Virus record (IMG/VR): IMGVR_UViG_3300034418_003573
Span: 1-37,240 of that record
DNA length: 37,240 nucleotides
Direction: 5' to 3' (one strand)
Origin: a virus
Part shown: one piece after another, positions 147 through 33,742 of the stretch
How positions within the stretch are numbered: position 1 is the stretch's first letter
Layout of the letters: every line of letters begins with the position of its first letter
The notes under the pieces: model-generated
What the model was told of the DNA's origin: nothing
Database searches by the model: none
Seen by the model: the letters and a program-made list of their open reading frames with translations, nothing else
Program-made: the position numbers and the translations under genes

Positions 147-623
147 TTAGTCAACAACGTAGTACATTGTCAGCTCAATAGTGCCTGTGCCAGCAGCACC
201 GCCCATTGTTACTGTTACAACGAACTCGTTATCAGCTAACTCACCATCAAGATCAACTTCTGATCCAGCACCAAGAGCCAAAGTATTCGCTACTTCGACA
301 CATTGTCCTGAAGTTGAAGCTGCTGCTGCTTTGTAACCAGCAGCTGCAGCAGAAACTGCTGTACCCGCTGAGTTAGTGTAAGCAGCATACCCAGCTGACA
401 ATGTTGTGCTTGCACCAAGTGCATCGTGACACAACTTGCCATGCAGGATGCGAGCGCCGTTAGGCAGCGAGAACATCTCGATTACATCGCCAGAAGAGAG
501 GTTAGATGCTTCATACTGAGCATGAGCGACTCTCATTGATCCGCCAATCTGGTTAGCTTGTACGAACTCAGAAGGATCATCCTGAGTAAGGTCCGTCCGG
601 ACATTAGAGTATACAGTTGCCAT
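147..623 (-). CDS. Presumed capsid decoration/head protein (allele 1)
   Basis: This 158-residue protein follows the major capsid gene by 13 bases and is preceded by a strong AAGGAG ribosome site. It is rich in Ala, Gly, Ser and Thr and looks like an all-beta structural protein: residues 1-30 are polar, the middle is Ala-rich, and the C-terminus ends in a hydrophobic beta strand (TMYYVVD). There is no signal peptide or membrane segment. Small proteins directly after the capsid gene in podoviruses are usually head decoration or cement proteins. That role is inferred from position and composition, since I do not recognise a named family. The second copy at 36665 differs at 14 of 158 residues, spread over the length. 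Confidence 0.65.
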   Translation of the reverse strand: MATVYSNVRTDLTQDDPSEFVQANQIGGSMRVAHAQYEASNLSSGDVIEMFSLPNGARILHGKLCHDALGASTTLSAGYAAYTNSAGTAVSAAAAGYKAAAASTSGQCVEVANTLALGAGSEVDLDGELADNEFVVTVTMGGAAGTGTIELTMYYVVD

Positions 624-9218: not shown

Positions 9219-9740
9219 ATGATGAAAAAAGCGATGAGTCCGGCAGCGATGGTTGCCAAAGAGTTGAAAGCCCGGTTCAAAAAAGAGCTTGGCTTGAAGG
9301 TGACCTGGAGTCGCAGCGAATACTACGCTGGTGGCTGCAGCGTCAAGATTGACATTGAGAATCCGCGCCCTGCTGAGTACGCAGCAGCAAAGGCAATGGC
9401 TGCCAACTACGAGTGCGGCAACTTCAACGGCATGGAAGACATCTACGAGATCAAGCCAGGCTACGATTTCAACAAGCCGCACTGTGACTATGTGTTCGTG
9501 ACTCCACGGTACAGCGATGACGTCATGGCTGCTGCCAAAGAATACGCTGCCAAGTATGGCGTGTTGGATGCGAGCTTCCGCGAGCCATGCGCCTGGAAAG
9601 CGTTGACTTTGGATCGGTTCTGGGAGTTCTACGACTACGGATACAAGAGCGTGTTAGAAGCAAAGATGGCTGGCGATGATGCTGCTGCGGACAAGATGTT
9701 CGACAAAGCCAAAGCTGGCGAAGTGATTCGATTGGTTTAA
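9219..9740 (+). CDS. LPD29-like domain protein
   Basis: The 173-residue product has a segment with KVTWSRSEYYAGGCSVKIDI (28-47) and, after a short gap, NGMEDIYE (about 69-76). This resembles the small domain called large polyvalent protein associated domain 29, in which a phage/mobile-element protein has a K-x-S-x-R-Y-x-G-G-S-I-x-V pattern and a later F-D-G-M-x-D-x-Y. The assignment is from memory, not searched. The C-terminal half is helical (DDVMAAAKEYAAKYG and the terminal KMFDKAKAGEVIRLV) and unrecognised. These domains are found as stand-alone early phage proteins and in large ejected proteins; their function is uncharacterised. The start follows AGGAGAAAAC and is the first gene after early promoter 2. 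Confidence 0.6.
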   Translation: MMKKAMSPAAMVAKELKARFKKELGLKVTWSRSEYYAGGCSVKIDIENPRPAEYAAAKAMAANYECGNFNGMEDIYEIKPGYDFNKPHCDYVFVTPRYSDDVMAAAKEYAAKYGVLDASFREPCAWKALTLDRFWEFYDYGYKSVLEAKMAGDDAAADKMFDKAKAGEVIRLV

Positions 9741-9755: not shown

Positions 9756-10040
9756 ATGGATATCAAAAAACGAGCAAAGATTATCGCTGCCCTGGTCGAG
9801 GCCGGGTACGAAAAAGCAGTGATGACGGACTGGGGCCGAGAGGGCGACCTGGCGTTGAACTGCGAGGTCTGGTGTGGAGACGAGGTTGGAACTGCTGGTG
9901 ACTATTACGGCTGGGAAGACCCTTGGATGAAAGACATCTTGGACGACTTCGGAGTCAAACTCGACATCGTAAAAATCCTGGATAAGTTCAAAGCCTACAC
10001 TGAGTGGCACAACCCCGCTGTGTTCATGGTGGTTGCATGA
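9756..10040 (+). CDS. Hypothetical early protein, acidic, Trp-rich
   Basis: The 94-residue protein begins with a basic helix (DIKKRAKIIAALVEAGYEKAV) and continues as a strongly acidic part with several tryptophans (TDWGREGDLA, CEVWCGDEVG, GWEDPWMKDILDD). Acidic and aromatic composition is common in protein or nucleic-acid mimics, but I cannot place it. It is preceded by CTGGAGGGAAAAGTA. Its stop overlaps the ATG of the HD-domain gene as ATGA. Confidence 0.65.
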   Translation: MDIKKRAKIIAALVEAGYEKAVMTDWGREGDLALNCEVWCGDEVGTAGDYYGWEDPWMKDILDDFGVKLDIVKILDKFKAYTEWHNPAVFMVVA

Positions 10041-10516
10041 TGTTAGGTAAACGAGACATTGCCTTGGCCATTGCAGCCAAGGCCCACGAGGGCGCGGTCG
10101 ATAAAGCTGGCGCGCCTTACATCTTCCATCCAATGCGAGTCGCTGAAGCTGCGAGTAAAAACGCAGCGCCAGGCACCTGGGACAATCGATACATCGTCGG
10201 TGTGCTGCACGATGTCCTGGAAGACAGCGACATCACAGAGACTGAGATCGCTGAAGCCCTGGGTATCGGCCTGGACAGCGACATCATGAACGCGCTGCGA
10301 GCGATCACCAAAGAACCAGGCGAGCCGTACCATGAGTTTATCGAGCGCTGCGGACGCAATGAGTTGGCACGAGTCGTCAAGATGCACGACCTCGAAGACA
10401 ACATGGACCTGGACCGGATACCGAACCCAGGCAAGGCAGACTACAAGCGCGCAGAAAAATACGGAGTCGCGCTGCTTTACTTACGAAACATAGTTGGAAC
10501 AGGAGTACCATTCTGA
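10037..10516 (+). CDS. HD-domain (p)ppGpp hydrolase-like protein (SpoT/MESH1 type)
   Basis: The 159-residue protein matches the hydrolase half of RelA/SpoT enzymes and the stand-alone MESH1 class. It has A-x-x-A-H-E-G at 12-19, then G-x-P-Y-I-x-H-P with H31. The HD box is V-L-H-D-V-L-E-D (H58, D59, E62, D63). The third metal/substrate motif D-x-x-x-N (D118, N122) lies in KMHDLEDN. All metal-binding positions seem kept. The known reaction removes the 3'-pyrophosphate from ppGpp/pppGpp using Mn2+. Some relatives instead remove phosphate from other nucleotides. A phage copy could damp the stringent response or cancel a nucleotide alarm signal. It overlaps both neighbours by 3-4 bases. Confidence 0.8.
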   Translation: MMLGKRDIALAIAAKAHEGAVDKAGAPYIFHPMRVAEAASKNAAPGTWDNRYIVGVLHDVLEDSDITETEIAEALGIGLDSDIMNALRAITKEPGEPYHEFIERCGRNELARVVKMHDLEDNMDLDRIPNPGKADYKRAEKYGVALLYLRNIVGTGVPF

Positions 10517-10746
10517 TGAGTCAAGTCAAAGATATCGCCAGGTACCTGGCAGAACACAAGATCATCACAGCCCTGGAAGCACTCGAAGAGTTTGGCTGCT
10601 TCCGACTGGCTGCTCGAATCTATGATATCCGATCAAAGGGTATCGACATCATGGCAGCTGACCTCAAGCTGCCGAACGGTAAACATGTGACTCGCTACAT
10701 GTGGGTCAACACTGAGCGCAATGCTGCGCTACTGGAGAAACTGTAA
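10516..10746 (+). CDS. Helix-turn-helix protein, HTH_39-like
   Basis: The 76 residues fit a short winged-helix domain. Y-L-A-E-H-K-I-I-T-A-L-E-A-L-E-E-F-G-C-F-R-L-A-A-R-I-x-D-I-R (about 10-39) is the signature I recall for HTH_39, where an S/T-x-x-E-A helix leads into the GC-x-RL recognition helix. It probably binds DNA. Its gene sits between the HD hydrolase and the 2H phosphoesterase with TGATG and TAATG overlaps, so it may be a local regulator. It could alternatively be a host-directed regulator. Confidence 0.75.
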   Translation: MSQVKDIARYLAEHKIITALEALEEFGCFRLAARIYDIRSKGIDIMAADLKLPNGKHVTRYMWVNTERNAALLEKL

Positions 10747-11156
10747 TGTATTCATCAATCGTCCTGAGCCTTGAGTCCAGGACTGAGCTTCTTTGCAGAT
10801 ACTTCGACATCATCAAACATGACCTCAAGACGTTCGCACCCTGGAACTGTCTTGCTCATCACATGACCATCCGGTTTGGCAGCCCTGAGCTGCCAGACTG
10901 GGCATATCCAGATGAAGGCAGCGAACAAGCTCTCCTGGCTACACACTGGGGTATCAGCGACATGGCTATTGCAGTCAAGGTCAGCGGCTACCGATCAGAG
11001 AATGAGATCGCGCACATCACTGTCGCGGTCAACACCAAAGCTGGCGGCAAGCCCTGGATGTCGAACGAGATTAACCACTGGATTCCAATGCCAGAACCAA
11101 TCGAACTGGTAGGAACAGTCACTGGCTGGGAAAAAGTTATCCACAGACATGCTTAG
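10746..11156 (+). CDS. 2H phosphoesterase-like protein (two HxT motifs)
   Basis: The 136-residue protein has two histidine motifs: H39-M-T41 in AHHMTIRFG and H90-I-T92 in AHITVAVN, each starting a hydrophobic strand. This is the hallmark of the 2H phosphoesterase superfamily (LigT, CPDase and phage Acb1-like folds), whose members open cyclic phosphates or cut 2'-5'/3'-5' bonds in RNA or cyclic nucleotides. Spacing of 51 residues between the motifs fits a minimal single domain. After the second motif, GGKPWMSNEINHW resembles the loop seen in fungal tRNA ligase-type CPDases. The substrate is unknown; degrading CBASS or other cyclic signals, or RNA-end healing, are all possible. It is the last gene of early operon 2. 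Confidence 0.72.
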   Translation: MYSSIVLSLESRTELLCRYFDIIKHDLKTFAPWNCLAHHMTIRFGSPELPDWAYPDEGSEQALLATHWGISDMAIAVKVSGYRSENEIAHITVAVNTKAGGKPWMSNEINHWIPMPEPIELVGTVTGWEKVIHRHA

Positions 11157-11219
11157 CTAAGCCTATGCTAAGTATATAGAAATGCTAAGAGTGCTAAGCA
11201 TAGTGCTTAGCATTGCTCC
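11137..11219. other. Candidate replication origin: DnaA box plus GCTAAG cluster
   Basis: A perfect consensus DnaA box TTATCCACA (11137-11145) lies in the end of the 2H gene. Six GCTAAG/CTTAGC hexamers follow at 11152, 11156, 11167, 11184, 11193 and 11206. An AT-rich stretch (AAGTATATAGAAA) lies among them. Two arms, TGCTAAGCA (11192-11200) and TGCTTAGCA (11204-11212), make a 9-bp perfect inverted repeat with a 3-base spacer. The site sits between convergent genes. Iterons, a DnaA box and an AT-rich stretch are classical origin parts. The role is inference, though clustering of the hexamer is far beyond chance by eye. Confidence 0.5.
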
Positions 11220-11245: not shown

Positions 11246-11650
11246 CTAATTCCAATGTGGGTCAAGCGTTTCTCGCACGATTGAACACCACAAATCAAAA
11301 CTGATCTGCGCAGCCGAATTGAAATCGAACGAGTCATACGCATCTTTGCCCGGTCCATCCCAATCGACAAAGACCATGATCGGCTGCCGATCCTCTTTTA
11401 CAATCAAGCAAGGCCGAGCGCCAGCTCGAATTGCCTGGTCCACTGTCTGCTCCCAGAACCTGGTCAAGTCTCCATGTTTGACCTGGGCATACCGTTTACA
11501 TTCAACAGCCCATCCAGGCACTCCCAGGAGGTCATGGCCGCCTTCCCTGGTCTGGTCCAGGTTGCGCTTGCAATCAAAACCCAGGCAATCCTTAATCAGA
11601 TTGACCACTTCACGTTCAAAGGCTGCGCCCTTGTTCCTGCTATTAGCCAT
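11246..11650 (-). CDS. PD-(D/E)XK nuclease, Holliday-junction-resolvase-like
   Basis: From the ATG at 11650 the 134-residue product has the resolvase core: KGAAFERE (7-14, with the helix-1 Glu at 12), G-G-H-D-L-L (D40) and W-A-V-E-C-K-R (E50, K52). These form the E...D...E-x-K metal site of Hjc/RecU-like PD-(D/E)XK nucleases, followed by a helix that faces the substrate. Such phage enzymes cut branched DNA during recombination or before packaging. The longer frame to 11854 is an artefact, since it runs antisense across the HTH gene. The start lies inside the last codons of the HTH gene (8-base overlap), so both are made from one leftward message. Confidence 0.75.
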   Translation of the reverse strand: MANSRNKGAAFEREVVNLIKDCLGFDCKRNLDQTREGGHDLLGVPGWAVECKRYAQVKHGDLTRFWEQTVDQAIRAGARPCLIVKEDRQPIMVFVDWDGPGKDAYDSFDFNSAAQISFDLWCSIVRETLDPHWN

Positions 11651-11861
11651 ACTCTCGCTCCAGGTAAAAGTCGTTTGGCTGCACCTCTCCCTGGGAGATC
11701 TCAAAGATGCGCAGCATGTAGGTTGGACCGGGGATTCTGAAGTCCGGGTGGTCCATCGGTTGGCACCATCTGCGAACCACACTTGCATGCGATGCGCCGA
11801 CCAGGGTGGCGAGACCCCGGTATGAATGGCCCTTATTCTTCCGCCAGGTATCAAGTTTCAT
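11643..11861 (-). CDS. Cro/CI-like helix-turn-helix regulator
   Basis: The 72-residue protein contains SYRGLATLVGASHASVVRRW (about 13-32), a good helix-turn-helix with the small residue before the turn and hydrophobic positions as in Cro/CI-type DNA-binding domains. The second half (DFRIPGPTYMLRIFEIS) resembles the strand or helix that completes small Cro-like repressors. It is a natural candidate for the protein that binds the TGACCA palindromes, although this is not shown. The ATG at 11861 has no ribosome site. A -10-like box ends 8 bases upstream of it, suggesting a leaderless mRNA as known for lambda cI from PRM. A GTG three codons upstream is the alternative. Confidence 0.72.
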   Translation of the reverse strand: MKLDTWRKNKGHSYRGLATLVGASHASVVRRWCQPMDHPDFRIPGPTYMLRIFEISQGEVQPNDFYLEREYG

Positions 11862-11868
11862 GCGGTCC

Positions 11869-11896
11869 ACAGTACACCAGGCGCAACTTTGGTCAA
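11869..11896 (-). promoter_or_regulatory. Leftward promoter of the HTH/nuclease operon
   Basis: On the minus strand TTGACC (11896-11891), a 16-base spacer and TACTGT (11874-11869) precede the ATG at 11861 by 7 bases. The -35 box overlaps the half-site TGGTCA (plus strand 11890-11895), so autoregulation is likely. The -10 box is weak, matching 3-4 of 6 consensus positions. Confidence 0.5.
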
Positions 11897-12236: not shown

Positions 12237-12361
12237 ACATTTACTTCGATTACCTGGATGGCTTAGCGCCAAAGTACCTGGCTAAAAAGCATGGCATCAC
12301 CAGGGGTCGCATCTACCAGATCTTGAAAGAGATCGATAAAGGCGGGGATCGTATTATATGA
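12200..12361 (+). CDS. Sigma-region-4-like HTH miniprotein
   Basis: From a GTG at 12200 the frame encodes about 53 residues, mostly a helix-turn-helix: DYLDGLAPKYLAKKHGITRG then RIYQILKEIDK. The pattern L-A-K-K-x-G-I-T-R-G-R-I-Y-Q-I matches region 4.2 of sigma-70 factors, which contacts the -35 box. The start is uncertain because no strong ribosome site is seen, and the frame could extend to 11984. Its TGA overlaps the nuclease ATG at 12358 as ATGA. A paralogous HTH follows the nuclease at 13287. Confidence 0.55.
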   Translation: MGTGRRNAQRDLNIYFDYLDGLAPKYLAKKHGITRGRIYQILKEIDKGGDRII

Positions 12362-13290
12362 GCGCTCCAGAATGGGCAGCCAGGCACCACTACTGGCACC
12401 ACTCCAACCCGCGCAGCAAGCCATTGGCCAAGACGCTTTTTGACAAGGCGCATGTACGGCCTTTGGTACGCAAGGCATGGGATACATACCGGAGTGACTG
12501 GGCGACCGACCATGACCGCGAGGATGCGTTACAGACCATCTTGCGTCTAGATCAGTCGATGAATAAATCAAGCAGCGCAAAAATGTTTGCAGGAATCGTA
12601 GTCCAGGATGCGTGTGACAAGATACTGCTGCAGAATAAGGACCCAGGTTTTGTCTTTGACCTGGCGCTGCAGAAGTACATGGAGTACGAACCCAGGGATT
12701 GGGACAACGGCGTTGATGCGGAAGACTGGAGTAACTGCCAGGGCAAGCTGGTCGATGTCATACGCTGCAGCGTTGAAGGTTTGCGTGAAGCGATGAGTCA
12801 GGCCGACAGTGTGTTTGGTGAGACCGATCTCAAAGGATGCTTGCCTGGCAACCAGGTTGAACACTTCAACAAGCCTGACTATGTAGGCTGCGGAGATCTC
12901 AAGACCAAGTGGCCGAAGCGCAACACCAGGACAAAGAAAGGATTCTCTGAGGCGTCGCTGCCGAAAGATCTATCAGGCATGTTCGATATGAACAACGTGT
13001 ACCAGGTTGCTGGCGGCTGGTGGATCAACGGTAAGAAACCTGTCTGGCTGCTTTACTCGAACGGGAACGACTACACAATCCTGAGCGAGAAAAACTGCGA
13101 GCAGCTGCAGCCTGAGTACCTGGAGCAAATCGTTGCTGAGACCTCACGCATGCATAAGCTGACTGAGAAGATGCTCAAGGCTTCGGAAACTAAAGAGGAG
13201 CTGCTTGAATGGGTAGTGCCTAACTTTGACGACCTGGCCTGGAAGGAGCCGCCTGGCTACCTTGAAGAAGCACGAAGGATTTTCAGGTGA
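12358..13290 (+). CDS. RecB/Cas4-like PD-(D/E)XK exonuclease
   Basis: The 310-residue protein shows the order of motifs of the RecB/Cas4-type nuclease family. A helix with MFAGIVVQDACDKIL (76-90) stands where these enzymes have G-x-x-x-H-x-x-x-E. E168 lies in QVEHF. The D-x-K core is Y-V-G-C-G-D180-L-K182-T-K, followed after about 30 residues by N-N-V-Y-Q-V (213-218), equivalent to the Q-x-x-x-Y helix. The N-terminus is rich in His, Trp and Arg (WAARHHYWHH). Such enzymes resect DNA ends and here are coupled to an ERF annealing protein, giving an exonuclease-annealase recombination pair. It overlaps both flanking HTH genes by 4 bases. Confidence 0.7.
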   Translation: MSAPEWAARHHYWHHSNPRSKPLAKTLFDKAHVRPLVRKAWDTYRSDWATDHDREDALQTILRLDQSMNKSSSAKMFAGIVVQDACDKILLQNKDPGFVFDLALQKYMEYEPRDWDNGVDAEDWSNCQGKLVDVIRCSVEGLREAMSQADSVFGETDLKGCLPGNQVEHFNKPDYVGCGDLKTKWPKRNTRTKKGFSEASLPKDLSGMFDMNNVYQVAGGWWINGKKPVWLLYSNGNDYTILSEKNCEQLQPEYLEQIVAETSRMHKLTEKMLKASETKEELLEWVVPNFDDLAWKEPPGYLEEARRIFR

Positions 13291-23938: not shown

Positions 23939-26436
23939 CGTGCAAGATCTCCTGCTGCTGCTCCTATGTCAGGCGCTCTTGATGGGGCAGTTTGTCCAGG
24001 TCTCCACCAATAACGCTGACCGTATTCTTTTTTCCTCAATCTCTCAAGTCTTCTCATATTCGATCTTGCATCTGGGTCTGCCCAAATCCGCATCTGATCG
24101 AAGACCATTCTTTCTAACGCTGTCCTCAAATACCAAATACTTGAGCCAGGCGTATACCTTGCTGCAAATGTTAACATTTCCTTCGCCAATTTTGGATCTT
24201 CTCCAGTCAACGCCTGGACAACATTCCCAGAGGAAAGATTCCTTAGATCACTTACAAGGCCACCAATGACTGGTCCAGCAACAGTTTCTCCAAGCCCTCT
24301 GTTGTGCCGATTGACATCAGAAAACAGGAAATCGCCATAAATACCAAAACCACCTCCAGCAAGCATTGCAGCCATCCAGAAGTCTGGGTCGTCCATTGGA
24401 CGAGGATCTCTTCCTTTTGCAATTTCTTTAAGCTGCAAACCAAGAGCGCCCATCAGCGTTGTGCTGATAATTAAATCAGCCATGTACAGCCCTTTGGCTT
24501 TTGGCCCAGAGCGCATAGCTGCCCTGGTAAAATGATCGCCAACAACTGTCACGCCAAAGTTTTTGAATTGCGCAAATGAGCGCAAAATTTCACCTGGCAG
24601 CGTTCCTGGTCTACTTTCTCCATACAGCGTATATGCGCCTCTTGCTGAAGATGTAGGGATAGCCGTGTCTGTTTCTGCATTGATTGCTTGCTGCCATTTT
24701 GTAGAAAGCCTGGTTGCTTCTTCAAAAGACAAATCAGTTCTTTTATCTATCGCTGCAGATGTTAAGAATTCTGCTCCGTCTTCAACGTATGGCGCAGTCT
24801 GCCGTATGGCATCCCAGTCAGCTTCATTGATTCCATGCTTTAACAAAGTCTCTCTGTTTTCTGGTGTCAACTGGTCAAATGTTTTTCCTGCAGCGTCCGC
24901 ATAGTAACTTGTCCAGGACATACCAAAAGCCCATCGACCAGCTGTTGTATGCGGGGAAAGCAACGAAGCGTTCATTGTGAAGTCAGAAATTCGCCTGGTA
25001 ATTTCTGTGCCTGATACGTCTCCAATGAAACGCATCTGAGCTGTAGCGACTTGCGCCCATCCGTCAGCAATCAATCCCTGGGAAATAGCTATCTTTGCTC
25101 GCTCTTCGTAACCAAGTGGATTCATGTACTTTAGGTAATCCTTGATTATCGAAGTCTGTGGCAAGCCAGCCATCCTCCTGGCAATCCGCTGAAAGTTTAA
25201 GTCTGTAATCGCAATTAGTGATGTTGCCCCCAGAAATGCACCAGAAATCAACTGACGCATACCTGCAAAAGTTTGCGCAACTTTAGGGTTTATGGGGCTA
25301 TTCACTGCTCCAGTTATGTGTTGATACAAACCTCTTGCTTTGTTTATGTCGGATGTATATTTAGCTTTTGCCTTTGGGTCGGCTCCTGTTTCTCTGTAAG
25401 CCACGTTCTCCAGGTAGGCAAGCATTGAGTGTGGGTTGGGGCCAAGAACCTCCATAACGCCAATATCCCTGGACATGGTTTCAATGTGCTGAACCATCGT
25501 TTCAAAAATATTGTCGTTGCCAAATTTTTTTTGGTACTGCAGCCAGGAATCAGCATCTTTAAAAACCAGAAACCTGTGATCTGCGCGAGTGTTCCTTAAA
25601 GCCTTTTTCCCTTGCCCACGATTGAAACCTAGCGCTGTTCTGCTTGCGTTTTCTGTAACGATTGCTTCGTGCATATCTTTTAAAGCAATCTCAATCGTCT
25701 CCCTGGTAAATGGCAGTCCCGTTGTGGAATCGATCATTTTATCCAGGTCAATGTAATCAAGTAACTCATCGCGCCAAATTTGATATCCATCATCCAGGTT
25801 CTGAGCAACTGTTCTTATCTTGTCTGCGTTATGTGATGTAGGGAAGTTCCAGTCAGCCCGCTTAGGAATATGTCCTCCAGCAGCGTTAAACCTACGTCTA
25901 AGGTATTCGCTGCCATCAGCCCAGGATGCAGATAGCTCTCGTGCAACAGCGTCACCAGTGTCTTCACCAAAACTTTCTCTTACTGCATTTTCAAGATTTG
26001 CTTTATTTCTTGTTTGCCCTAAAAGATTTCTGTGGCCTTTAGCCAGGATGTTGCTAATCCGCGCATAAGCTAGATTTCTAACAGCATCAATCTGGCCTTT
26101 TACGCTGCCAAATGTTCCAAGATTTAATTTGTCCATCAAAGCAACAATGCCTTCGCTGGCACTATTTTGATTTTTTATGGTTTTGTAGCCTAAAATATTT
26201 CGCCTGTTTTCCGTGGCCTTTCTAGCCTGGATCAATGCCACACGTTTCTTTTCCTTTGCTTCAAAAGAAAACGCATCAAATGCCTGTTGACCAGCAATTC
26301 GCTCTGCTTCAGCTTTTGGCATCCTTGCAGCATTTTCTTCAACAGCGCCTTCAAATAGATCAGAAATCTTATCTAATCGCTCCGGGTCGATCTTGCCTTC
26401 AGCCCTGGCATTTGCAATACATTGTCTAAAGCTCAT
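23935..26436 (-). CDS. Large internal virion/ejection protein (833 residues)
   Basis: The start is the ATG at 26436 sharing a base with the previous TAA (TAATG); the longer frame adds three residues from a TTG. The protein is helical with mixed charge: R-Q-C-I-A-N-A-R-A-E-G at the start, coiled segments at about 40-100, then a long region with alternating Ala/Gly helices and aromatic patches (D-Y-L-K-Y-M-N-P-L-G, W-A-F-G-M-S-W-T-S-Y-Y). A late hydrophobic part reads A-D-L-I-I-S-T-T-L-M-G-A-L-G-L. Proteins of this kind precede the fibre gene in many podoviruses and are ejected with DNA or form the internal core (T7 gp15/gp16-like role). No lysozyme motif is evident. The role is inferred from position and size. 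Confidence 0.7.
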   Translation of the reverse strand: MSFRQCIANARAEGKIDPERLDKISDLFEGAVEENAARMPKAEAERIAGQQAFDAFSFEAKEKKRVALIQARKATENRRNILGYKTIKNQNSASEGIVALMDKLNLGTFGSVKGQIDAVRNLAYARISNILAKGHRNLLGQTRNKANLENAVRESFGEDTGDAVARELSASWADGSEYLRRRFNAAGGHIPKRADWNFPTSHNADKIRTVAQNLDDGYQIWRDELLDYIDLDKMIDSTTGLPFTRETIEIALKDMHEAIVTENASRTALGFNRGQGKKALRNTRADHRFLVFKDADSWLQYQKKFGNDNIFETMVQHIETMSRDIGVMEVLGPNPHSMLAYLENVAYRETGADPKAKAKYTSDINKARGLYQHITGAVNSPINPKVAQTFAGMRQLISGAFLGATSLIAITDLNFQRIARRMAGLPQTSIIKDYLKYMNPLGYEERAKIAISQGLIADGWAQVATAQMRFIGDVSGTEITRRISDFTMNASLLSPHTTAGRWAFGMSWTSYYADAAGKTFDQLTPENRETLLKHGINEADWDAIRQTAPYVEDGAEFLTSAAIDKRTDLSFEEATRLSTKWQQAINAETDTAIPTSSARGAYTLYGESRPGTLPGEILRSFAQFKNFGVTVVGDHFTRAAMRSGPKAKGLYMADLIISTTLMGALGLQLKEIAKGRDPRPMDDPDFWMAAMLAGGGFGIYGDFLFSDVNRHNRGLGETVAGPVIGGLVSDLRNLSSGNVVQALTGEDPKLAKEMLTFAARYTPGSSIWYLRTALERMVFDQMRIWADPDARSNMRRLERLRKKEYGQRYWWRPGQTAPSRAPDIGAAAGDLAR

Positions 26437-29400
26437 TACACGCAATCCTTAAATCGTTCGATTAAAGCATCATCCATCTCAAAATCTTTTTGCATTTCGT
26501 CAAATGTTTGCATCCTGGGCTGCATTTGGGCATCCTCATCAACAAATATCCCAGCGGTAGGGAAACCGTCTGGATCATTGGTTTCGTTGACCAAATCTGT
26601 TACACTGAACTCGGAGGTATTAGAAGTGAGATTTTTCATGGTAGACGGCATATCACTGGCAGCATGGGATGTTGACAGTGACGTTGTGTCTGTGTGGGAC
26701 GGACGCGCTGGTGCCTGGAGATCAGGTAAAGGTGCCTCCCGTATATTGATGGACGACAGGTCGCCCGAAATATCAGCAGCCGAAGCTGCATCTCTTGCGC
26801 TCAAACTTGGCACCAACCTCCGGTCAATCTCAAGCGTTGCTAACATGGAATCAAACGTAGAAGGCAGTTCATCAGCGACTTCTTGATACAGAGTTCTCAT
26901 TTCGGTTGACAATCTCTTCTCAACGTCAATGTCTGCTTCGTTAATTAGTTCGCCATCATCGTCACGCTTTAATGCGCGCCAAAGTTCATAAAGTTTATGC
27001 CCGCCAGTATAAGGTTTTGTTTCCCCTTTTTTATTGACGTATGTTGCTTCATATCCAAACCTGGTTAGGTCAGCAGTATTTTTAGCGTCAAGCATGCCTG
27101 GAGGCCAAAACTGAATTTCAGCAAGCATCCCGTCAGGCATGATAACCAGGGCTTTTGCATCAAAATAACCAACTGGAGTTTTCCCCCAGCCTTCATCAAT
27201 GATGTGCCACTTGTAGTCTTCGTTTAGTTTTTTAAGTACGGCCCTGGCATCTTCTGGGCGGTAAACGGTCATGCCAGTCCTGGCTATGTCTGTAACGTTA
27301 TACAAAGATGGTAATAAGTTGTCTGGATCAGCTTTGTATTTCTCAACCAGTTTCTCTATTGTAGCATCTGCTTCTTTAACTGGAGGGACTAAAAACTTTC
27401 CAGCATCGTCTTTCTTTGGTTTAAATTCCAGGCCAAGGTCATTTGCAATTTTCTCAACCGCCTCATTCAGCGCCTGGTGATTTGCAGCGCCCCTAGTCAT
27501 CATGCTGTCAAAAGATTCAAACTCTTGGTTATGCAAGACTTCATTCATAAATGAACCAAAGCTCACTTTGTCAGACTCTTGCTTGTCTACATATCTTGGT
27601 TTTTCTTTTGCGCCAGGACGCAGAATATTGGCCATTGCTTTTTCTGATGTGGCAGAAGCAAACTCCTCATCAGTTGTTACGCGAATAGGCATGCTCTCCC
27701 ATCCGCTATCTACAGCAACCGAATAGGTACTATTTCCGTCACGCAGCTCATACGTTCCATCACCAAGATCTTTGGCTTCAACAGGCATGCGCTTTTCCAT
27801 GAGGCCTTCTTCGGCCTGAGACATAAACACTTTTGCATTAAATATTCCTTCGCCCCTAGCTCTTATTGGTTTGATATCACGCAAAGAAACCATTAAGTAA
27901 TCGCCAGTCGTATCAAAATACAAAGACGGATCTGGCTTCAGCCTTATGGCAGCCATTTGTCTGAATACTTTCCTGGCAACAGCTTCTCCAGCTGCGGTTA
28001 AACCACCTGACTGAGCTTTTGGATTTTGGCTGCGATATAAGTAAGAAAGCGTTGAGCCAATCCCGCGCCCCTGGAAATCTGTTGCGACTAGACCCTGGAC
28101 CCCACCTTCGTACCTGCGCCAATACCCAAGGATGAGATCTTCTGTCTCGTGCATAGCAAAGATGTCTGGACCGCTGCGATCTTTCATATAAATAACGCCG
28201 TCAACCCGAGCTATTTCTACAGTGCTTATTGGAAAGTCAAAGGCTTCGTCCATTGTCAAATCAGTTAACTCAAGCGAATCCAAGCGCATTGCTTCAACTT
28301 CTGGTACGCGCAGCCCACCTGGGTTGATTAACTCAATATAAGCATCTTCATCAAATTTGCCGATTGACTTAGCAACATTCTGCCGAACTTCTTCAAAAGC
28401 ATCCGCTGCCTGTTTTGTTGCCCCTTCTCCAACTACGTCGTCAAAGAGCGAGAAATCTTCGTCCTGGACAACCTGCGGGCGTTCTGAGACTTCCGCTTGA
28501 TTGCGTGAATGTACGAAATCATCTCCGCTTGCGTAGCGATCAAATTCGCCCTCATCAACTGCTCTTCTGACGGACCCGAGGAATTGTTCGACAGCTCCGT
28601 CATACTTTCCTGATTCTCTTGCAATCTTAGCTGCGTCTGTAAGCGCGGACGAGATTGGCCCCCTTGCGTTTGCGAGCGCTGTGAGGATTTCGAGCGTTTT
28701 CTCTTCATCAGTGATACGTCTCCTGTTGTTCTCTTTAATTACAACATTGCCTTCTTCTTCGAGGCGACTAGCGTTTCTAACAATGTTATTGAAAGCAGCC
28801 TTGTCTTTTCTTATTTGTTTCTGCGCTCTATCCAGGATAACTGCGCGCTCCTCAAAATAAGAATCAATAAAGGTTTCTGCGCCAAACAATCCTTCCTGGG
28901 TTACTTTTTCGTAACCAGCAACCTTAACGTCTTTGACAATCTGAGTAGCCTGGAATTCATTGTTCGGCTCAATCCTGGCTAAAACTTTAAAAGCAGCTTC
29001 CTGCATTGCAGCGTCATCAGGAATTAGTTGACCGATAACTGCGCCATAGTTCATTGGAACCAGGCCGTTTATCATATAAGGCCATAGCTCTTCATTGATT
29101 GCCATGATTGCCCTACCCTGCCTAGCAATCGCTGACTCCTTGCCGAAAGATAACTTTTCGATATCTTCCGGGCGCATCTTAAATACCCTTGCTGCATCCA
29201 ATGCAGAACCAGTTCCCTGGCGAATATTTTTAATGGCTGCTGAATAACGCAAGTCTTCCGCAGAAAAACCATCTGTTTCCCGGAAAATAATGACAGGCAG
29301 CCTTGGCTCTTGTGCCGGATCTGTATCCATAATTCGCTTAGCAAGGCCCAATCTCTGATGTCCATCGGCAACAAAATTGGCCCCGTCAGATCTTTGCCAA

Positions 29401-30884
29401 ACCATAATTGGGTCAGCTGCATTTTGATCCCACTGCGTTACGTCAGCAAACTTGGGTAAGACACCGTACCTATCGCCTCCAGATTTAAACTGGAAAGTTT
29501 CTGCATCAACCTGGATGGACCGCAAATCATCTCCGCCCCAGATTGGGAGGCTGCTTTCTTCTATTGCTTCGTTAATTGGAGATATTGGTTTTTCGGGAAT
29601 ATTTGGTGCTTTATTGTGAACTACGGCTTCTGTTGCTGCTGCAGATCTTTCCGCATGTTCTAAATTAGCTCTTGCACCCTGCCATGCCTCATCAATTTCA
29701 TTCTGTTTTGTTAACCAGTCATCAATGTTTTTTGTGGATTGATCCCATAATTTTTTAATGCCATTGACATCTAAGTCTTTGGTAATTTGAGCAAGCTGCG
29801 CGTTCCTTTCTTCAATAGTAATTTCGCCGCGTTCATAAGCGTCAAGCACTGGTTGCCATAATTCGGCTTGCTGTTTTTTTACTTCTTCCCAAGATATCTT
29901 GTAACCTGCTTCAATATCGAGCAGCCTATCCATTTCTTTTTGCCATCGTGCTAAAGGCAGAGGCAGAGGCAAATCTTCTAAAGGATTTGTGGTTTGCAGA
30001 TCTTCAAGTTTTTCAAGAGCAACTTCAGCAGCTTTAGCATCTGCAGATGGTGAGTCGGCAAGGCCGCTATCTTTGTAAGCCTTAATTCCTTTCTTTACTT
30101 GATCCGCAGTTAACTTCATGGTCCCAGAAAAAATAGCGCTAAATGCGCCGCCAGCTGCCGTTCTTGTAACAAAGTCTTCCCAGCCATACTCATACCCTAG
30201 CTCTTCGTACCAGGAAGCAACTCTTGGCTGCAACAATGCTGTTACTCCTGCGCCAACAACAAATTCGCGCAGCAACAACGAACCAAGAGTTTTAGCGCCA
30301 GCTGAGTAAAGACCAGATGGTAATGTTAGATATGTGAATGGATCATAAGCAGCAGAAGCAACACCAGCGCCCATACCGACCAGCCAGTTAGTCGCACCGT
30401 ATGACCTCCCCTCGACTTCCATGTATTGCTGTCTTTTGCTTCTAGCAAGGTTTTTTGCCTCCTCTTCTATATTCCTGGATGCGAAATCTGCAACTTCCGG
30501 GAACCGATCCTGGTTATCCAAAATATGCTTTCTAATTTTATTGGCGCGTTCTCCGTAGTCAGATGTTCCGCTATAAGCAAAAGATGATTCTGGATCAATC
30601 ATCTCTCCACGCTGTTCAGCTTCATATATTTCTCGTTCAGTTTTCTCCGCAATGATGGAGTCGCCTGGATTGTCGAAAGTAATTCCGTCACGCTCTTGGA
30701 TTAAATCAATATATGGCTGCCATGCGTCTTGGTGCGAATACAAGTCAGACACAAACAGCTCATTGTAAATGCTGTCTTGCAGAGCAAATTCCCAAACTTC
30801 AGAAGCGCTTGCGCTAGGTTTGTTGCTCCAGACACTAGGCTGGAATGGAGCTTGCGATTTTTTTTGGAAAAGAAACGAACTCAT
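26436..30884 (-). CDS. Giant polyvalent virion protein (ParB/DdrB-, GNAT- and RelA/SpoT-like segments)
   Basis: The 1482-residue protein starts at an ATG overlapping the previous stop (ATGA). Residues 165-220 are hydrophobic and Gly/Ala-rich. Residues 310-420 are a long charged helical region. Residues about 450-560 resemble the DdrB/ParB-like domain, with V-A-D-G-H-Q-R-L-G-L-A-K at 505-516. Residues about 895-960 look GNAT-like, with D-F-Q-G-R-G-I-G-S-T-L at 936-946 as the acetyl-CoA loop. Residues about 1165-1305 resemble a RelA/SpoT nucleotidyltransferase: D1199-I-A-R, G1239-Y-F-D, L-A-E1256-I-Q and G1295-H-K-L-Y-E. Polyvalent proteins are packed in the capsid and delivered with DNA. That this protein is ejected is inferred from its position between core-protein genes. 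Confidence 0.75.
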   Translation of the reverse strand: MSSFLFQKKSQAPFQPSVWSNKPSASASEVWEFALQDSIYNELFVSDLYSHQDAWQPYIDLIQERDGITFDNPGDSIIAEKTEREIYEAEQRGEMIDPESSFAYSGTSDYGERANKIRKHILDNQDRFPEVADFASRNIEEEAKNLARSKRQQYMEVEGRSYGATNWLVGMGAGVASAAYDPFTYLTLPSGLYSAGAKTLGSLLLREFVVGAGVTALLQPRVASWYEELGYEYGWEDFVTRTAAGGAFSAIFSGTMKLTADQVKKGIKAYKDSGLADSPSADAKAAEVALEKLEDLQTTNPLEDLPLPLPLARWQKEMDRLLDIEAGYKISWEEVKKQQAELWQPVLDAYERGEITIEERNAQLAQITKDLDVNGIKKLWDQSTKNIDDWLTKQNEIDEAWQGARANLEHAERSAAATEAVVHNKAPNIPEKPISPINEAIEESSLPIWGGDDLRSIQVDAETFQFKSGGDRYGVLPKFADVTQWDQNAADPIMVWQRSDGANFVADGHQRLGLAKRIMDTDPAQEPRLPVIIFRETDGFSAEDLRYSAAIKNIRQGTGSALDAARVFKMRPEDIEKLSFGKESAIARQGRAIMAINEELWPYMINGLVPMNYGAVIGQLIPDDAAMQEAAFKVLARIEPNNEFQATQIVKDVKVAGYEKVTQEGLFGAETFIDSYFEERAVILDRAQKQIRKDKAAFNNIVRNASRLEEEGNVVIKENNRRRITDEEKTLEILTALANARGPISSALTDAAKIARESGKYDGAVEQFLGSVRRAVDEGEFDRYASGDDFVHSRNQAEVSERPQVVQDEDFSLFDDVVGEGATKQAADAFEEVRQNVAKSIGKFDEDAYIELINPGGLRVPEVEAMRLDSLELTDLTMDEAFDFPISTVEIARVDGVIYMKDRSGPDIFAMHETEDLILGYWRRYEGGVQGLVATDFQGRGIGSTLSYLYRSQNPKAQSGGLTAAGEAVARKVFRQMAAIRLKPDPSLYFDTTGDYLMVSLRDIKPIRARGEGIFNAKVFMSQAEEGLMEKRMPVEAKDLGDGTYELRDGNSTYSVAVDSGWESMPIRVTTDEEFASATSEKAMANILRPGAKEKPRYVDKQESDKVSFGSFMNEVLHNQEFESFDSMMTRGAANHQALNEAVEKIANDLGLEFKPKKDDAGKFLVPPVKEADATIEKLVEKYKADPDNLLPSLYNVTDIARTGMTVYRPEDARAVLKKLNEDYKWHIIDEGWGKTPVGYFDAKALVIMPDGMLAEIQFWPPGMLDAKNTADLTRFGYEATYVNKKGETKPYTGGHKLYELWRALKRDDDGELINEADIDVEKRLSTEMRTLYQEVADELPSTFDSMLATLEIDRRLVPSLSARDAASAADISGDLSSINIREAPLPDLQAPARPSHTDTTSLSTSHAASDMPSTMKNLTSNTSEFSVTDLVNETNDPDGFPTAGIFVDEDAQMQPRMQTFDEMQKDFEMDDALIERFKDCV

Positions 30885-33238
30885 TTCCCGTACAGCTCCT
30901 GCCAGGCTCTAATATTGATTATCAGAGGATCTCCAAAGTCATCTGTAATCCCTTCGTGATAACCAAAGGAATCACCACGAATTAGATAGTATTGGTCTTT
31001 ACCGTAAGCAACTAATGAATACAGGGCGCTTTCTTCTCTGATGTCTTCAGATAAACCAGGATTAACAACTTGCCCGTCTGTGACTTCAAAAAATTGCTCA
31101 TCAGTGACATTCTTTAATAGTTTCTTAACATCATCAGCATCGGTGTTATCTGGCAGGAGTACCATATTGTTCCTTGCCATTTCATGGAATCCACCTTTAC
31201 CTGTAGATTTGTTTTGACCAAATGCTTCTTGAATTGCTTGCGCATAGATTTCTTCATTAAATTCACCTAAACCTTGTGCTCTGTAGGCATAGATGCCTTT
31301 TGCTAATTCGTACCCTGCGGTCATTGACGAAGGGTTGTTTATTAACGACTTTCCTACTGTCTGGTTAAATACTTCTTGCATTGTTGTTTGGTCGTATTTA
31401 ACTGGTGCGCCGTTCTTAATAAGGTCTAAACCTTGTAGCGCATCACTAACTACAGAGTGTTTACCGTCAACCAGTAATCCGCCAAGGTGCGCGTATTCAT
31501 CTACATTTTTGGCATCAACAAGTTCGCCCAAGACGATTGGAGCGTCATTACCAAATCCTTGCGCAATACTGGTTAGCAGCGCATGGCGTGACCCTGCGTC
31601 GCCGTTTTTCAATAAATCAGATAACGCTGATCTTTCTGCGTCAGTAGTAAACTGGGGCGTCGTTAAACCAAACTTGTCTGCTACAAAGTACGCATCGCGA
31701 CTCCGACGCGCTGCGTTCTGCATCCACTCCTGGCTAACCTGTGGGCGACCATTAACAAGAACTGCTCTGCCTCTATCATCACGCTGATACATATCCGCAA
31801 TCAAAGGACTCGAAACAATAAGATCTCGATTCTGTGCAGCTTCCAGGGCATCACCACTTGCTATCTTGGAACTCAGTCCAGAAAGCATCTGACGCCCATT
31901 CTTGATGACGACAGCCGCTTCCATTGTTACGCCACCTGATTCCTTAGCTTTGCTCTCCATCTCGTCAACTGCTGCAGCTAGTTCTAAAGGACCCATTTTC
32001 CGCATGCCAGTAATGATGTCGTAAGTTGCCTTTAATACGTTTTGAGCCTGGACTAAAGATGCAGGAGCTTGAGTTCCTAAAGCAGCAATCTGTCTATCTG
32101 GGGCTAGAATTGTTGCTACCCCAGGATCAAACCCATCTAACAAAAGCCTTGTTGCGTCTGCTTGCTGCTTCTCAATGGTTTTCACTACAGCGTTGATTTG
32201 GGCTTTCATCGAGCTTATTACGCCTTTACCGTGAGAAATCGTAGCTCTAAAGTCAGACGAAACCATTCCAACCTGGTCTGGCGTACCCATCATTACATCA
32301 AGCAATTTTTTCTTTTTATCCTCAAACGACACTTCTGGATTGTTAAAGTATTGCTCAAGCTCAAGTCTTTGCTCGTCAGATAACAGCGCTTTAGCTGCTT
32401 TATCCAACTGTTTCTGTGTTCTTATTTCACCTTCTATTGCGTTTTTTAGCTGCTTTACTTCTGTAGGCAAAAGATACGACAATTCAGAAGCAATATTATC
32501 TGGGACCTTCCCTTGCTCGAAATCTGCAAGAAATTTCTCAACAACCTCTACTGGCTGCGTACTACTTAATGCGTCAATGTGATTTACGATTCTGTTTTTA
32601 GCTACCATTGTCCTGGTAGTCATTGCTCTTGCTGCAGCTTTATCTGGTGATATAAAGCCGTTCTGTATGCCGTTGTCGTAAAAACTTTTGATGCCATTAG
32701 CAGGGTCACCAAATAGTTCTACAGATGCGTTCATGTCACCGCTTGCTGCTGCAAGTTTTAGGCTTTCTTCTCTTTCAAGCCAGGTAGCTGTGCCGATACT
32801 GGCGCGCATAGATCGAGTAAATCTTTGTACATTAGCGGTTTGTTTTTGCGAAGTGGCATCGTACTGTAGAAAAAACTGTTGCCTGGTGGCGTCGTTCTGA
32901 ATTGCTTTAGACTGTTTCTCCCGGTGAAAAGTTACACTGTCCTGCCAATACTGATCCGCCTCGTCTGGGTTTCCCCTTTTTGCCATTTCTTCTGCCATAG
33001 CAGCAGATTCACTTAGCATGCGGTTCGACTCATTAAGAGCTTTTAATCGCTCGGTTTCATTGCGCTGCTGAAGCTCAGCCTTGCCATACTGAAACGCTGC
33101 GTCTTCTGCCTGGGCATAAAATGCTTTCGCTGCTTCAGCGCCACGCGCAAACTGCTGAGGGCTTGCTTGTACTGACATACGCTGCCCACCAACTTCAGTG
33201 GTCCGCTGAACTTGCTGGGTATAGGTAGGTACTTTCAT
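30881..33238 (-). CDS. Internal core/ejection protein (785 residues)
   Basis: The protein is long, helical and Gln/Ala/Lys-rich, with an N-terminal region of coils (P-Q-Q-F-A-R-G-A-E-A-A-K-A-F-Y, and later E-L-Q-Q-R-N-E-T-E-R-L-K-A-L). Most of its length alternates charged helices. The order small protein, then this, then the giant protein is the T7 gp14-gp15-gp16 order of internal virion proteins that form the ejection channel. No catalytic motif is seen. It starts one base after the previous stop and overlaps the next start by 4 bases. Confidence 0.75.
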   Translation of the reverse strand: MKVPTYTQQVQRTTEVGGQRMSVQASPQQFARGAEAAKAFYAQAEDAAFQYGKAELQQRNETERLKALNESNRMLSESAAMAEEMAKRGNPDEADQYWQDSVTFHREKQSKAIQNDATRQQFFLQYDATSQKQTANVQRFTRSMRASIGTATWLEREESLKLAAASGDMNASVELFGDPANGIKSFYDNGIQNGFISPDKAAARAMTTRTMVAKNRIVNHIDALSSTQPVEVVEKFLADFEQGKVPDNIASELSYLLPTEVKQLKNAIEGEIRTQKQLDKAAKALLSDEQRLELEQYFNNPEVSFEDKKKKLLDVMMGTPDQVGMVSSDFRATISHGKGVISSMKAQINAVVKTIEKQQADATRLLLDGFDPGVATILAPDRQIAALGTQAPASLVQAQNVLKATYDIITGMRKMGPLELAAAVDEMESKAKESGGVTMEAAVVIKNGRQMLSGLSSKIASGDALEAAQNRDLIVSSPLIADMYQRDDRGRAVLVNGRPQVSQEWMQNAARRSRDAYFVADKFGLTTPQFTTDAERSALSDLLKNGDAGSRHALLTSIAQGFGNDAPIVLGELVDAKNVDEYAHLGGLLVDGKHSVVSDALQGLDLIKNGAPVKYDQTTMQEVFNQTVGKSLINNPSSMTAGYELAKGIYAYRAQGLGEFNEEIYAQAIQEAFGQNKSTGKGGFHEMARNNMVLLPDNTDADDVKKLLKNVTDEQFFEVTDGQVVNPGLSEDIREESALYSLVAYGKDQYYLIRGDSFGYHEGITDDFGDPLIINIRAWQELYGK

Positions 33239-33742
33239 TTATGCCATCCCGTACAAAGTTGCTGCTTTTGTTGCGCCACTTAGCAATGTTCCAGCTGCGC
33301 GATACTCTGATTCTCTAACTGCTTGTTTACCGTAAAGCCTGTTTAAATCAGCCTGTATTCTCTCTTGAACAGCGCCTTCCAGCACCTGAGCTTGGGCAAT
33401 AGCTGTATTGTATTGCAAGTTAGCTATGTCCTGGTCAGCTGCTGATGCAGCTTCAATCTGCAACTGCAATCCTGTACCTGTGTCGGCGTCCCATCCGTTC
33501 ATCGCCAGGGTACGCTCCTGCATAGCCCGGAACTCTGCGTAACGTCCTTTGATATCCTGGACGTTTAAATCGCTTTCCCTCTTTATGACTTCAGCGCGCT
33601 GCTCAGCGATAACTGCGTTTCGCTCATTTACATTTGCGTTAAATTCCAGAGCAACCTGCTGCGACTTACCAGAGTCAATAGCAGCCCCAGCTCCTAAAAG
33701 TGAGCTGCCGACTGCTAATATTGCTGCTGCTTCAAAAGACAT
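33239..33742 (-). CDS. Small internal virion protein (T7 gp14-like role)
   Basis: The 167-residue protein has a hydrophobic Ala/Gly-rich start (AAILAVGSSLLGAGAAI) and then long charged helices (NANVNERNAVIAEQRAEVIK). The motif M-N-G-W-D-A-D-T-G-T-G appears near the middle, followed by a second long helix. Size, topology and place before two very large virion proteins fit the first of the three internal virion proteins that cross the envelope during ejection. The assignment rests on layout. Confidence 0.7.
   Translation of the reverse strand: MSFEAAAILAVGSSLLGAGAAIDSGKSQQVALEFNANVNERNAVIAEQRAEVIKRESDLNVQDIKGRYAEFRAMQERTLAMNGWDADTGTGLQLQIEAASAADQDIANLQYNTAIAQAQVLEGAVQERIQADLNRLYGKQAVRESEYRAAGTLLSGATKAATLYGMA

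What the first reader, a model, noticed from the sequence alone, without database searches (positions are those of the whole stretch)
10037..11156. Coupled HD hydrolase, HTH and 2H phosphoesterase: possible signal-nucleotide eraser cassette
Three genes overlap by 1-3 bases: a SpoT/MESH1-like HD hydrolase with intact metal ligands (H31, H58, D59, D118) and D-x-x-x-N motif, an HTH_39-like regulator and a minimal protein with two HxT motifs. Both enzyme classes can destroy nucleotide second messengers ((p)ppGpp; cyclic or 2'-5' linked nucleotides, as Acb1 does for CBASS). Early co-expression suggests a dedicated counter to host alarm or CBASS/toxSAS-like defence.
Basis: partly seen in the sequence, partly recalled or inferred. 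Interest (0 to 1): 0.75.

Follow-up and report, generated by a model that had tools for sequence, protein, structure and literature searches.

The report
Phage alarmone-maker with its own antidote

Summary
The three overlapping genes are real. The HD protein is a (p)ppApp-hydrolase (Aph1)-type alarmone hydrolase: best solved relative 7smg, E 4e-27; 43-44% identical to the pneumococcal prophage Aph1, whose family was tested experimentally. HTH_39 is a common phage DNA-binding protein. The third gene has both HxT motifs and resembles 2H/tRNA-ligase cyclic-phosphodiesterases, only weakly. The "cassette" is not a unit: a sister phage with a 94% identical HD gene lacks the 2H gene.

The main discovery lies 16 kb away. 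The phage's 1482-aa protein, in the position of the T7 gp16 ejection protein, has a C-terminal domain whose only sequence match in the PDB is Tas1, a (p)ppApp-synthetase toxin (E 6.7e-6). Its predicted fold matches alarmone synthetases (Foldseek best hit Tas1; Z 10-12), and the catalytic residues are kept. Aph1-type phage contigs carry such domains on four different virion proteins (MuF, portal, XkdF protease, gp16-like): 8 of 28 against 0 of 50 controls.

Best reading: virion-delivered alarmone synthetase plus early antidote, a new variant of MuF-Apk2/Aph1. Delivery, activity and product are not shown. Erasing host alarmones or toxSAS products remains possible; CBASS or Acb1 has no support.

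The parts
10037..10516 (+). Aph1-type small alarmone hydrolase (HD domain), 158/159 aa; start at 10037 or 10040
   Evidence: 7smg E 3.9e-27, PHROG 990 E 3e-41, Aph1 clade in tree
10516..10746 (+). HTH_39 winged-helix protein, 76 aa
   Evidence: Pfam HTH_39 E 1.5e-11; common in phages
10746..11156 (+). Minimal 2H-like protein, 136 aa, motifs H39-M-T41 and H90-I-T92; absent from the sister phage
   Evidence: Weak tRNA_lig_CPD match; relatives share both motifs; absence in L010
9756..10040 (+). Upstream ORF of unknown function, overlapping the HD start
   Evidence: no Pfam family
26436..30884 (-). 1482-aa virion protein in the T7 gp16 (ejection protein) position, carrier of the synthetase domain
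   Evidence: Gene order and PHROG matches of neighbours
26850..27533 (-). Tas1-like alarmone-synthetase domain, residues 1118-1345
   Evidence: Tas1 only PDB sequence hit, E 6.7e-6; fold search
27279..27290 (-). D1199-I-A-R1202: predicted Mg-binding Asp and ATP-binding Arg
   Evidence: Invariant with Tas1 and Apk2
27111..27119 (-). E1256-I-Q1258: predicted catalytic Glu and Gln
   Evidence: Invariant with Tas1 and Apk2
33239..33742 (-). Internal virion protein (gp14-like), context for the carrier
   Evidence: PHROG 418 E 8.8e-11
30881..33238 (-). 785-aa protein in the gp15 position, context for the carrier
   Evidence: Position and size only

Best explanation
The HD gene encodes an Aph1-type small alarmone hydrolase, probably made early in infection. 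Its main job is most likely to remove the product, probably (p)ppApp, of an alarmone-synthetase domain that the same phage carries at the C-terminus of its 1482-aa ejection-type virion protein. Proposed order: the virion protein enters the cell with the DNA; its Tas1-like domain transfers pyrophosphate from ATP to adenine nucleotides and so arrests the host or kills cells in which infection fails; the early hydrolase then turns the alarmone back into ADP/ATP so that a productively infected cell (or a lysogen) survives and can support the phage. Shown here: homology, fold, conserved catalytic residues and genomic linkage. Inferred: delivery, activity, product and timing. The HTH_39 protein is a bystander or local regulator. 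The 2H protein is an accessory RNA-end or nucleotide phosphoesterase that is not needed for the pair.
For: HD: 7smg '(p)ppApp hydrolase' E 3.9e-27. 43% identity to the S. pneumoniae prophage Aph1, at the low end of the 43-57% range among tested Aph1 proteins (PMC12226406). D-K-x-G loop; tree places the window HD with 7smg and the Sp and Mh Aph1 in a clade holding all 51 D-type and only 2 of 33 R-type sequences. Synthetase: only PDB sequence hit is Tas1, E 6.7e-6; fold search ranks Tas1 first and alarmone synthetases fill the top rows; K, K, D, R, Y, E, Q, K, H, Y invariant with Tas1 and two MuF-Apk2 toxins. Carrier: gene order tail, tail, internal virion protein, 785 aa, 1482 aa. Linkage: 8 of 28 Aph1-selected viral contigs have the domain, 0 of 50 controls. 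Carriers differ: MuF, portal, XkdF protease, gp16-like. In the sister phage the 1482-aa protein has diverged widely, yet the synthetase core is kept at 60% and Aph1 at 94%. PHB04 independently has portal, synthetase, small ORF and SAH in a row.
Against: No activity, delivery or timing is measured. The published adenosine signature at syn3 (GxN; PMC12226406) reads D-A-K in the window, so the product could be (p)ppGpp-like or pyrophosphorylated tRNA. In 35 cellular or prophage loci with D-type HD genes only 1 has the domain within 10 kb, so Aph1 often lives without it. Synthetase and hydrolase are 16 kb apart on opposite strands, and no IapK-like partner was found. AF2 model confidence is moderate (pLDDT 70, pTM 0.67). 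The linkage contigs are not all independent, and two of the viral positives trained the profile.
Confidence: 0.58

Rival explanations
1. Host-directed eraser. The hydrolase removes host alarmones (stringent response) or products of host toxSAS defence such as pyrophosphorylated tRNA (CapRel, FaRel2); its presence beside a virion synthetase is secondary.
For: The SAH of Salmonella phage SSU5 removes the FaRel2 tRNA mark (PMC11559606), and many phages carry SAHs: 449 GenBank phage records match the HD protein, including lytic Pseudomonas phages where authors suggest alarmone control (PMC12846349). 34 of 35 D-type loci in cellular genomes lack a synthetase within 10 kb.
Against: The window HD lies in the Aph1 clade, close to members whose partner synthetase sits in the same phage, and the same genome has a Tas1-like domain with intact residues.
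Confidence: 0.25
2. The synthetase-like domain is a catalytically dead or structural remnant, or acts only inside the virion, and the HD gene is an unrelated metabolic gene.
For: The 1482-aa protein is divergent, Pfam RelA_SpoT does not detect it, and syn3 differs from Apk2.
Against: Ten key residues invariant across six divergent sequences, and the core is better kept than most of the protein between sister phages (60% against mostly 33-52% in the C-terminal half).
Confidence: 0.1
3. Signal-nucleotide eraser cassette: HD and 2H act together against CBASS or similar nucleotide-signalling defence, as Acb1 does.
For: Overlapping genes. Phage 2H domains have been proposed to degrade defence nucleotides (PMC5512222).
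Against: 2H is absent from the sister phage although HD and HTH_39 stay. No Acb1 similarity found. Aph1-type HD enzymes act on 3'-pyrophosphates, not on cyclic oligonucleotides (established for the family).
Confidence: 0.05

Closest known systems
MuF-Apk2 / IapK / Aph1 of S. pneumoniae, M. haemolytica and P. multocida prophages (PMC12226406)
   Same: Virion protein with C-terminal alarmone-synthetase domain plus an Aph1-type hydrolase in the same phage; same conserved catalytic residues; HD proteins 40-44% identical.
   Different: Carrier is a 1482-aa gp16-like protein, not MuF; hydrolase sits 16 kb away on the opposite strand with the small plus-strand genes instead of directly downstream; no IapK homologue found; no integrase found.
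Tas1 (Apk1)/Tis1 of P. aeruginosa T6SS (PDB 6ox6)
   Same: Only PDB sequence match of the window domain and top Foldseek hit; both are C-terminal alarmone-synthetase domains of larger proteins.
   Different: Delivered by T6SS, neutralised by the binding protein Tis1; about 20-27% identity; syn3 motif differs.
RelA/SpoT domains in phage polyvalent proteins (PMC5512222)
   Same: Large multidomain phage proteins thought to be packaged and injected, with an alarmone-synthetase domain beside other effector domains.
   Different: Reported there for spirochaete and epsilonproteobacterial (pro)phages and MuF; the passages read here did not describe a hydrolase partner or this podovirus type.
Small alarmone hydrolases of phages (e.g. 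PaSpo of phage SSU5; Pakpunavirus Adele)
   Same: Stand-alone HD hydrolases of the same superfamily.
   Different: No virion-borne synthetase has been tied to these; many phage SAHs found here belong to the R-K-x-G type instead.
Fungal tRNA ligase cyclic-phosphodiesterase (2H) domain, Pfam PF08302
   Same: Two H-x-T motifs; distant relative in Bacteroides phage DAC19 scores above the family cut-off.
   Different: Window protein itself is below cut-off, short (136 aa), with no ligase or kinase partner seen nearby.

Membership tests
Aph1 (p)ppApp hydrolase | HD fold with metal ligands H..HD..D and D-x-x-x-N | tested here: met
   H31, H58, D59, D118, N122; aligned to 7smg over residues 7-149
Aph1 (p)ppApp hydrolase | Groups with proven Aph1 proteins apart from RSH-type (p)ppGpp hydrolases (D-K-x-G versus R-K-x-G loop) | tested here: met
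   Tree of 111 sequences; D-type clade with 7smg, Sp and Mh Aph1. Node support is modest (0.75-0.79)
Aph1 (p)ppApp hydrolase | Published two-residue specificity signature (PNAS 2023, e2213771120) | not tested
   Paper not held in the library
Aph1 (p)ppApp hydrolase | Hydrolyses ppApp/pppApp in preference to ppGpp | not testable with these tools
   Needs an enzyme assay
Apk/toxSAS alarmone synthetase | Alarmone-synthetase fold | tested here: met
   Foldseek Tas1 E 7.2e-6; VIA Z 12.0 (exported SAS), 11.9 (RelP), 10.2 (Tas1)
Apk/toxSAS alarmone synthetase | Catalytic residues (FaRel2 K66, K74, D90, Y128, E145, Q147) | tested here: met
   K1170, K1178, D1199, Y1240, E1256, Q1258 invariant in a six-sequence alignment with Tas1 and Apk2; FaRel2 residues from PMC11782079 matched by order and spacing, not by alignment
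Apk2 (adenosine-specific synthetase) | GxN at syn3 | tested here: not met
   Y-F-D-A-K in window and sister; Y-K-G-V-N in Apk2
MuF-Apk2/IapK/Aph1 system | MuF N-terminal domain on the synthetase protein | tested here: not met
   No MuF match in Pfam or PHROGs for the 1482-aa protein
MuF-Apk2/IapK/Aph1 system | IapK immunity gene | tested here: inconclusive
   No tblastn match to two IapK proteins better than E 0.19; IapK diverges fast
MuF-Apk2/IapK/Aph1 system | Temperate phage | tested here: inconclusive
   No tyrosine integrase in window or sister; record completeness is not stated
Phage polyvalent proteins | Several effector domains in one large virion-packaged protein | tested here: inconclusive
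   Synthetase domain clear; ParB-like (PHROG 1033 E 0.023) and GNAT-like (E 0.0068) weak; virion context by gene order
2H phosphoesterase (tRNA_lig_CPD, PF08302) | Two H-x-[T/S] motifs | tested here: met
   H39-M-T41, H90-I-T92; both motifs kept in two distant homologues
2H phosphoesterase (tRNA_lig_CPD, PF08302) | Profile score above curated cut-off | tested here: not met
   16.6 bits against a cut-off of 23 for the window; its relative DAC19_96 scores 31.8
2H phosphoesterase (tRNA_lig_CPD, PF08302) | 2H core fold | tested here: inconclusive
   Single-sequence model pLDDT 39
Acb1 (anti-CBASS) | Recognisable similarity to Acb1 | tested here: inconclusive
   No significant PDB sequence match for P0003 or its small profile; no direct Acb1 comparison was made

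The most novel reading that the evidence does not exclude
A timed pulse-and-erase device: a short-tailed phage injects its own alarmone synthetase as part of an ejection protein to freeze the host at entry (and to kill cells where infection aborts), then makes a dedicated early hydrolase to lift the block. Phages have evolved this repeatedly by putting the same kind of synthetase domain on different virion proteins (MuF, portal, XkdF protease, gp16-like).
Probability: 0.3. Interest if true: 0.82.

Novelty: new variant of a known kind. Interest (0 to 1): 0.62.

Why it matters
If right, phages do not only erase host alarmones. They also deliver alarmone synthetases in the particle and carry the antidote, on several unrelated virion proteins and not only in temperate MuF phages. 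That gives a concrete role for one group of the widespread phage small alarmone hydrolases and turns "why do phages carry Aph1?" into a test with one active-site change in the synthetase and one gene removal.

Tried and rejected
Three-gene eraser cassette: rejected as a conserved unit, because the sister lacks 2H and HTH_39 contigs lack HD. Acb1/CBASS link: no support found. DNA-level relatives in GenBank phages: none. Relatives of 2H: only identical copies in IMG/VR, none in genome contigs. 2H structure: single-sequence AF2 failed (pLDDT 39), so no fold search was run. IapK homologue in the window: none convincing. Pfam RelA_SpoT does not detect the window domain at E 0.05; the portal fusion reaches only E 0.066. 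Linkage of Aph1-type genes to synthetases is not general in cellular genomes (1 of 35 within 10 kb). The VIA and Foldseek lists also show DNA polymerase lambda, cGAS and other Pol-beta-fold enzymes lower down; they share only the fold core.

Full report
WHAT IS THERE. The window is a whole IMG/VR virus record of 37,240 bases. It has a short-tailed phage layout: major head protein, head-tail connector PF12236, large and small terminase, tail proteins and an internal virion protein, all on the minus strand. A plus-strand block from about 7.5 to 15.7 kb holds small genes, an HTH_39 gene, a Mor-like regulator and an ERF recombinase. The finding lies in that plus-strand block. The three ORFs are at 10037/10040-10516, 10516-10746 and 10746-11156, each overlapping the next by one base, and the HD ORF overlaps the gene before it. 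That the block is "early" is inferred from layout; no promoter evidence was found.

THE HD GENE. P0001 matches PHROG 990 (E 3e-41) and, in the PDB, first of all 7smg, a "(p)ppApp hydrolase" (E 3.9e-27 over residues 7-149); the next hit, a Rel enzyme, is about 21 orders of magnitude weaker. The best GenBank phage relatives are the Aph1 genes of pneumococcal prophages (43%), then Pasteurella and Mannheimia phages (38-40%). PMC12226406 describes those genes as aph1, whose products hydrolyse (p)ppApp and partly neutralise the virion toxin Apk2; the tested Aph1 proteins are 43-57% identical to each other. The window protein has D-K-A-G where ppGpp-type hydrolases have R-[KR]-x-G. In a tree of 111 sequences it sits with 7smg and the two Aph1 proteins in a clade that contains all 51 D-type sequences and only 2 of 33 R-type sequences. 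I did not have the paper that defines the specificity signature, so substrate preference is inferred.

THE NEIGHBOURS. HTH_39 is a widespread phage protein: 69 relatives in viral contigs, and none of 50 such contigs has an HD relative. The third ORF keeps both H-x-T motifs. Its weak Pfam match is the cyclic-phosphodiesterase domain of fungal tRNA ligase (E 0.0059). A distant relative in Bacteroides phage DAC19 passes that family's cut-off (31.8 bits against 23), and an Agrobacterium jumbo-phage protein shares both motifs. A sister phage, L010 (94% identical HD, 77% HTH_39), goes from HTH_39 straight into the non-coding region, with no 2H gene. The trio is therefore not a conserved cassette.

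THE PARTNER. Since Aph1 is known as an antidote to a virion-borne synthetase, I looked for one. Residues about 1150-1300 of the 1482-aa protein (26436-30884, minus) hit exactly one PDB sequence, Tas1 (6ox6), E 6.7e-6. The profile built around it also recovers true long RelA/SpoT proteins (best E 8e-7), a positive control. An AlphaFold2 model of residues 1118-1345 from five sequences (pLDDT 70, pTM 0.67) gives Foldseek rank 1 Tas1 (E 7.2e-6), then small and long alarmone synthetases. VIA-align gives Z 12.0 (exported synthetase 8vx3, 181 residues, 4.0 A), 11.9 (RelP, 168 residues, 3.0 A) and 10.2 (Tas1, 171 residues, 4.4 A); other Pol-beta-fold enzymes start at about 7.3. K1170, K1178, D1199, R1202, Y1240, E1256, Q1258, K1268, H1296 and Y1299 are invariant with Tas1 and two MuF-Apk2 toxins. 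Their order and spacing fit FaRel2's K66, K74, D90, Y128, E145 and Q147 (PMC11782079). The adenosine motif GxN of Apk2 is not present (Y-F-D-A-K), so the product is open.

WHERE THE PARTNER SITS. Read in transcription order the minus strand gives 196 aa tail (PHROG 394), 760 aa tail (PHROG 376), 167 aa internal virion protein (PHROG 418), 785 aa, 1482 aa, then an 836-aa virion structural protein (PHROG 684). By order and size this is the T7 series gp11, gp12, gp14, gp15, gp16, whose last three are ejected into the host (my own knowledge). The 1482-aa protein also has weak ParB-like and GNAT-like segments, like the polyvalent injected proteins of Iyer et al. (PMC5512222), who already noted RelA/SpoT domains in some of them and on MuF.

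LINKAGE. I searched 28 IMG/VR contigs chosen only for an HD relative: 8 carry the synthetase domain. None of 50 contigs chosen for HTH_39 does (Fisher p 1.3e-4, or 1e-3 without contigs that trained the profile; contigs are partly related, so these are rough). The carriers differ: MuF-type capsid proteins (L118, L119), a portal protein (L112 5667-7985; its domain hits Tas1 with E 1.1e-12), an XkdF-type protease (L120) and the gp16-like protein here. In the MuF and XkdF cases Aph1 lies directly downstream; in the portal case and here it is elsewhere. In the portal-type group, contigs with Aph1 but no domain appear, from their contig coordinates, to end before the expected portal gene. Bordetella phage PHB04 has portal, synthetase-domain protein, small ORF and hydrolase in a row, with an R-type hydrolase. 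In the sister phage the 1482-aa protein is only about 20-70% identical by segment; the synthetase core (1201-1275) is at 60%, and Aph1 at 94%. That fits a hydrolase acting on a small molecule, not on the protein. Against this, only 1 of 35 D-type loci in cellular genomes has the domain within 10 kb.

MECHANISM. Most likely: ejected synthetase, brief alarmone burst, early hydrolase as antidote. Steps shown: both domains, their residues, their joint presence. Steps inferred: packaging, ejection, activity, product, timing and benefit (host arrest, killing of cells in which infection aborts, or protection against later-arriving sister phages). Main rival: HD removes host alarmones or toxSAS tRNA marks, for which a phage SAH precedent exists (PMC11559606).

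NOVELTY. Each half is a new member of a known family. The combination on an ejection protein of a short-tailed phage with the antidote placed among the probable early genes, and the portal and XkdF carriers, are a new variant of the MuF-Apk2/Aph1 and polyvalent-protein themes. The literature searches covered open-access papers only.

Noticed in passing
window 11137-11217: A perfect DnaA box (TTATCCACA, overlapping the last codons of the 2H ORF) followed by TGCTTAGC/TGCTAAGCA repeats and palindromes; the same block follows HTH_39 in the sister phage (L010 5757-5880). Possible replication origin or operator array.
   Followed up: partly
L112 5667-7985 (-): Portal protein (Phage_portal_3) with a C-terminal Tas1-like synthetase domain (Tas1 E 1.1e-12) in a phage contig that also has an Aph1-type gene at 12290-12796.
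   Followed up: yes
L120 1459-3519 (-); also L019, L020: XkdF-type phage serine protease (Peptidase_S78_2) fused to a synthetase domain, with Aph1 directly downstream.
   Followed up: partly
L133 5080-7345: Bordetella phage PHB04: 493-aa protein with synthetase domain, 69-aa ORF and small alarmone hydrolase next to the portal gene; annotated hypothetical or as bifunctional (p)ppGpp enzyme.
   Followed up: partly
window 147-623 and 36665-37141 (-): Two closely similar 158-aa proteins at the two ends of the record, beside the major head protein; suggests tandem paralogues across a circular junction and a nearly complete genome.
   Followed up: no
window 11246-11668 and 11643-11870 (-): A phage PDDEXK/RusA-like nuclease and a small HTH protein encoded against the plus-strand block, 96% identical in the sister phage.
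   Followed up: no
window 9219-9740 (+): LPD29-like protein next to the HD operon; a similar protein lies near the portal-synthetase gene in L112 (3049-3546, -).
   Followed up: no
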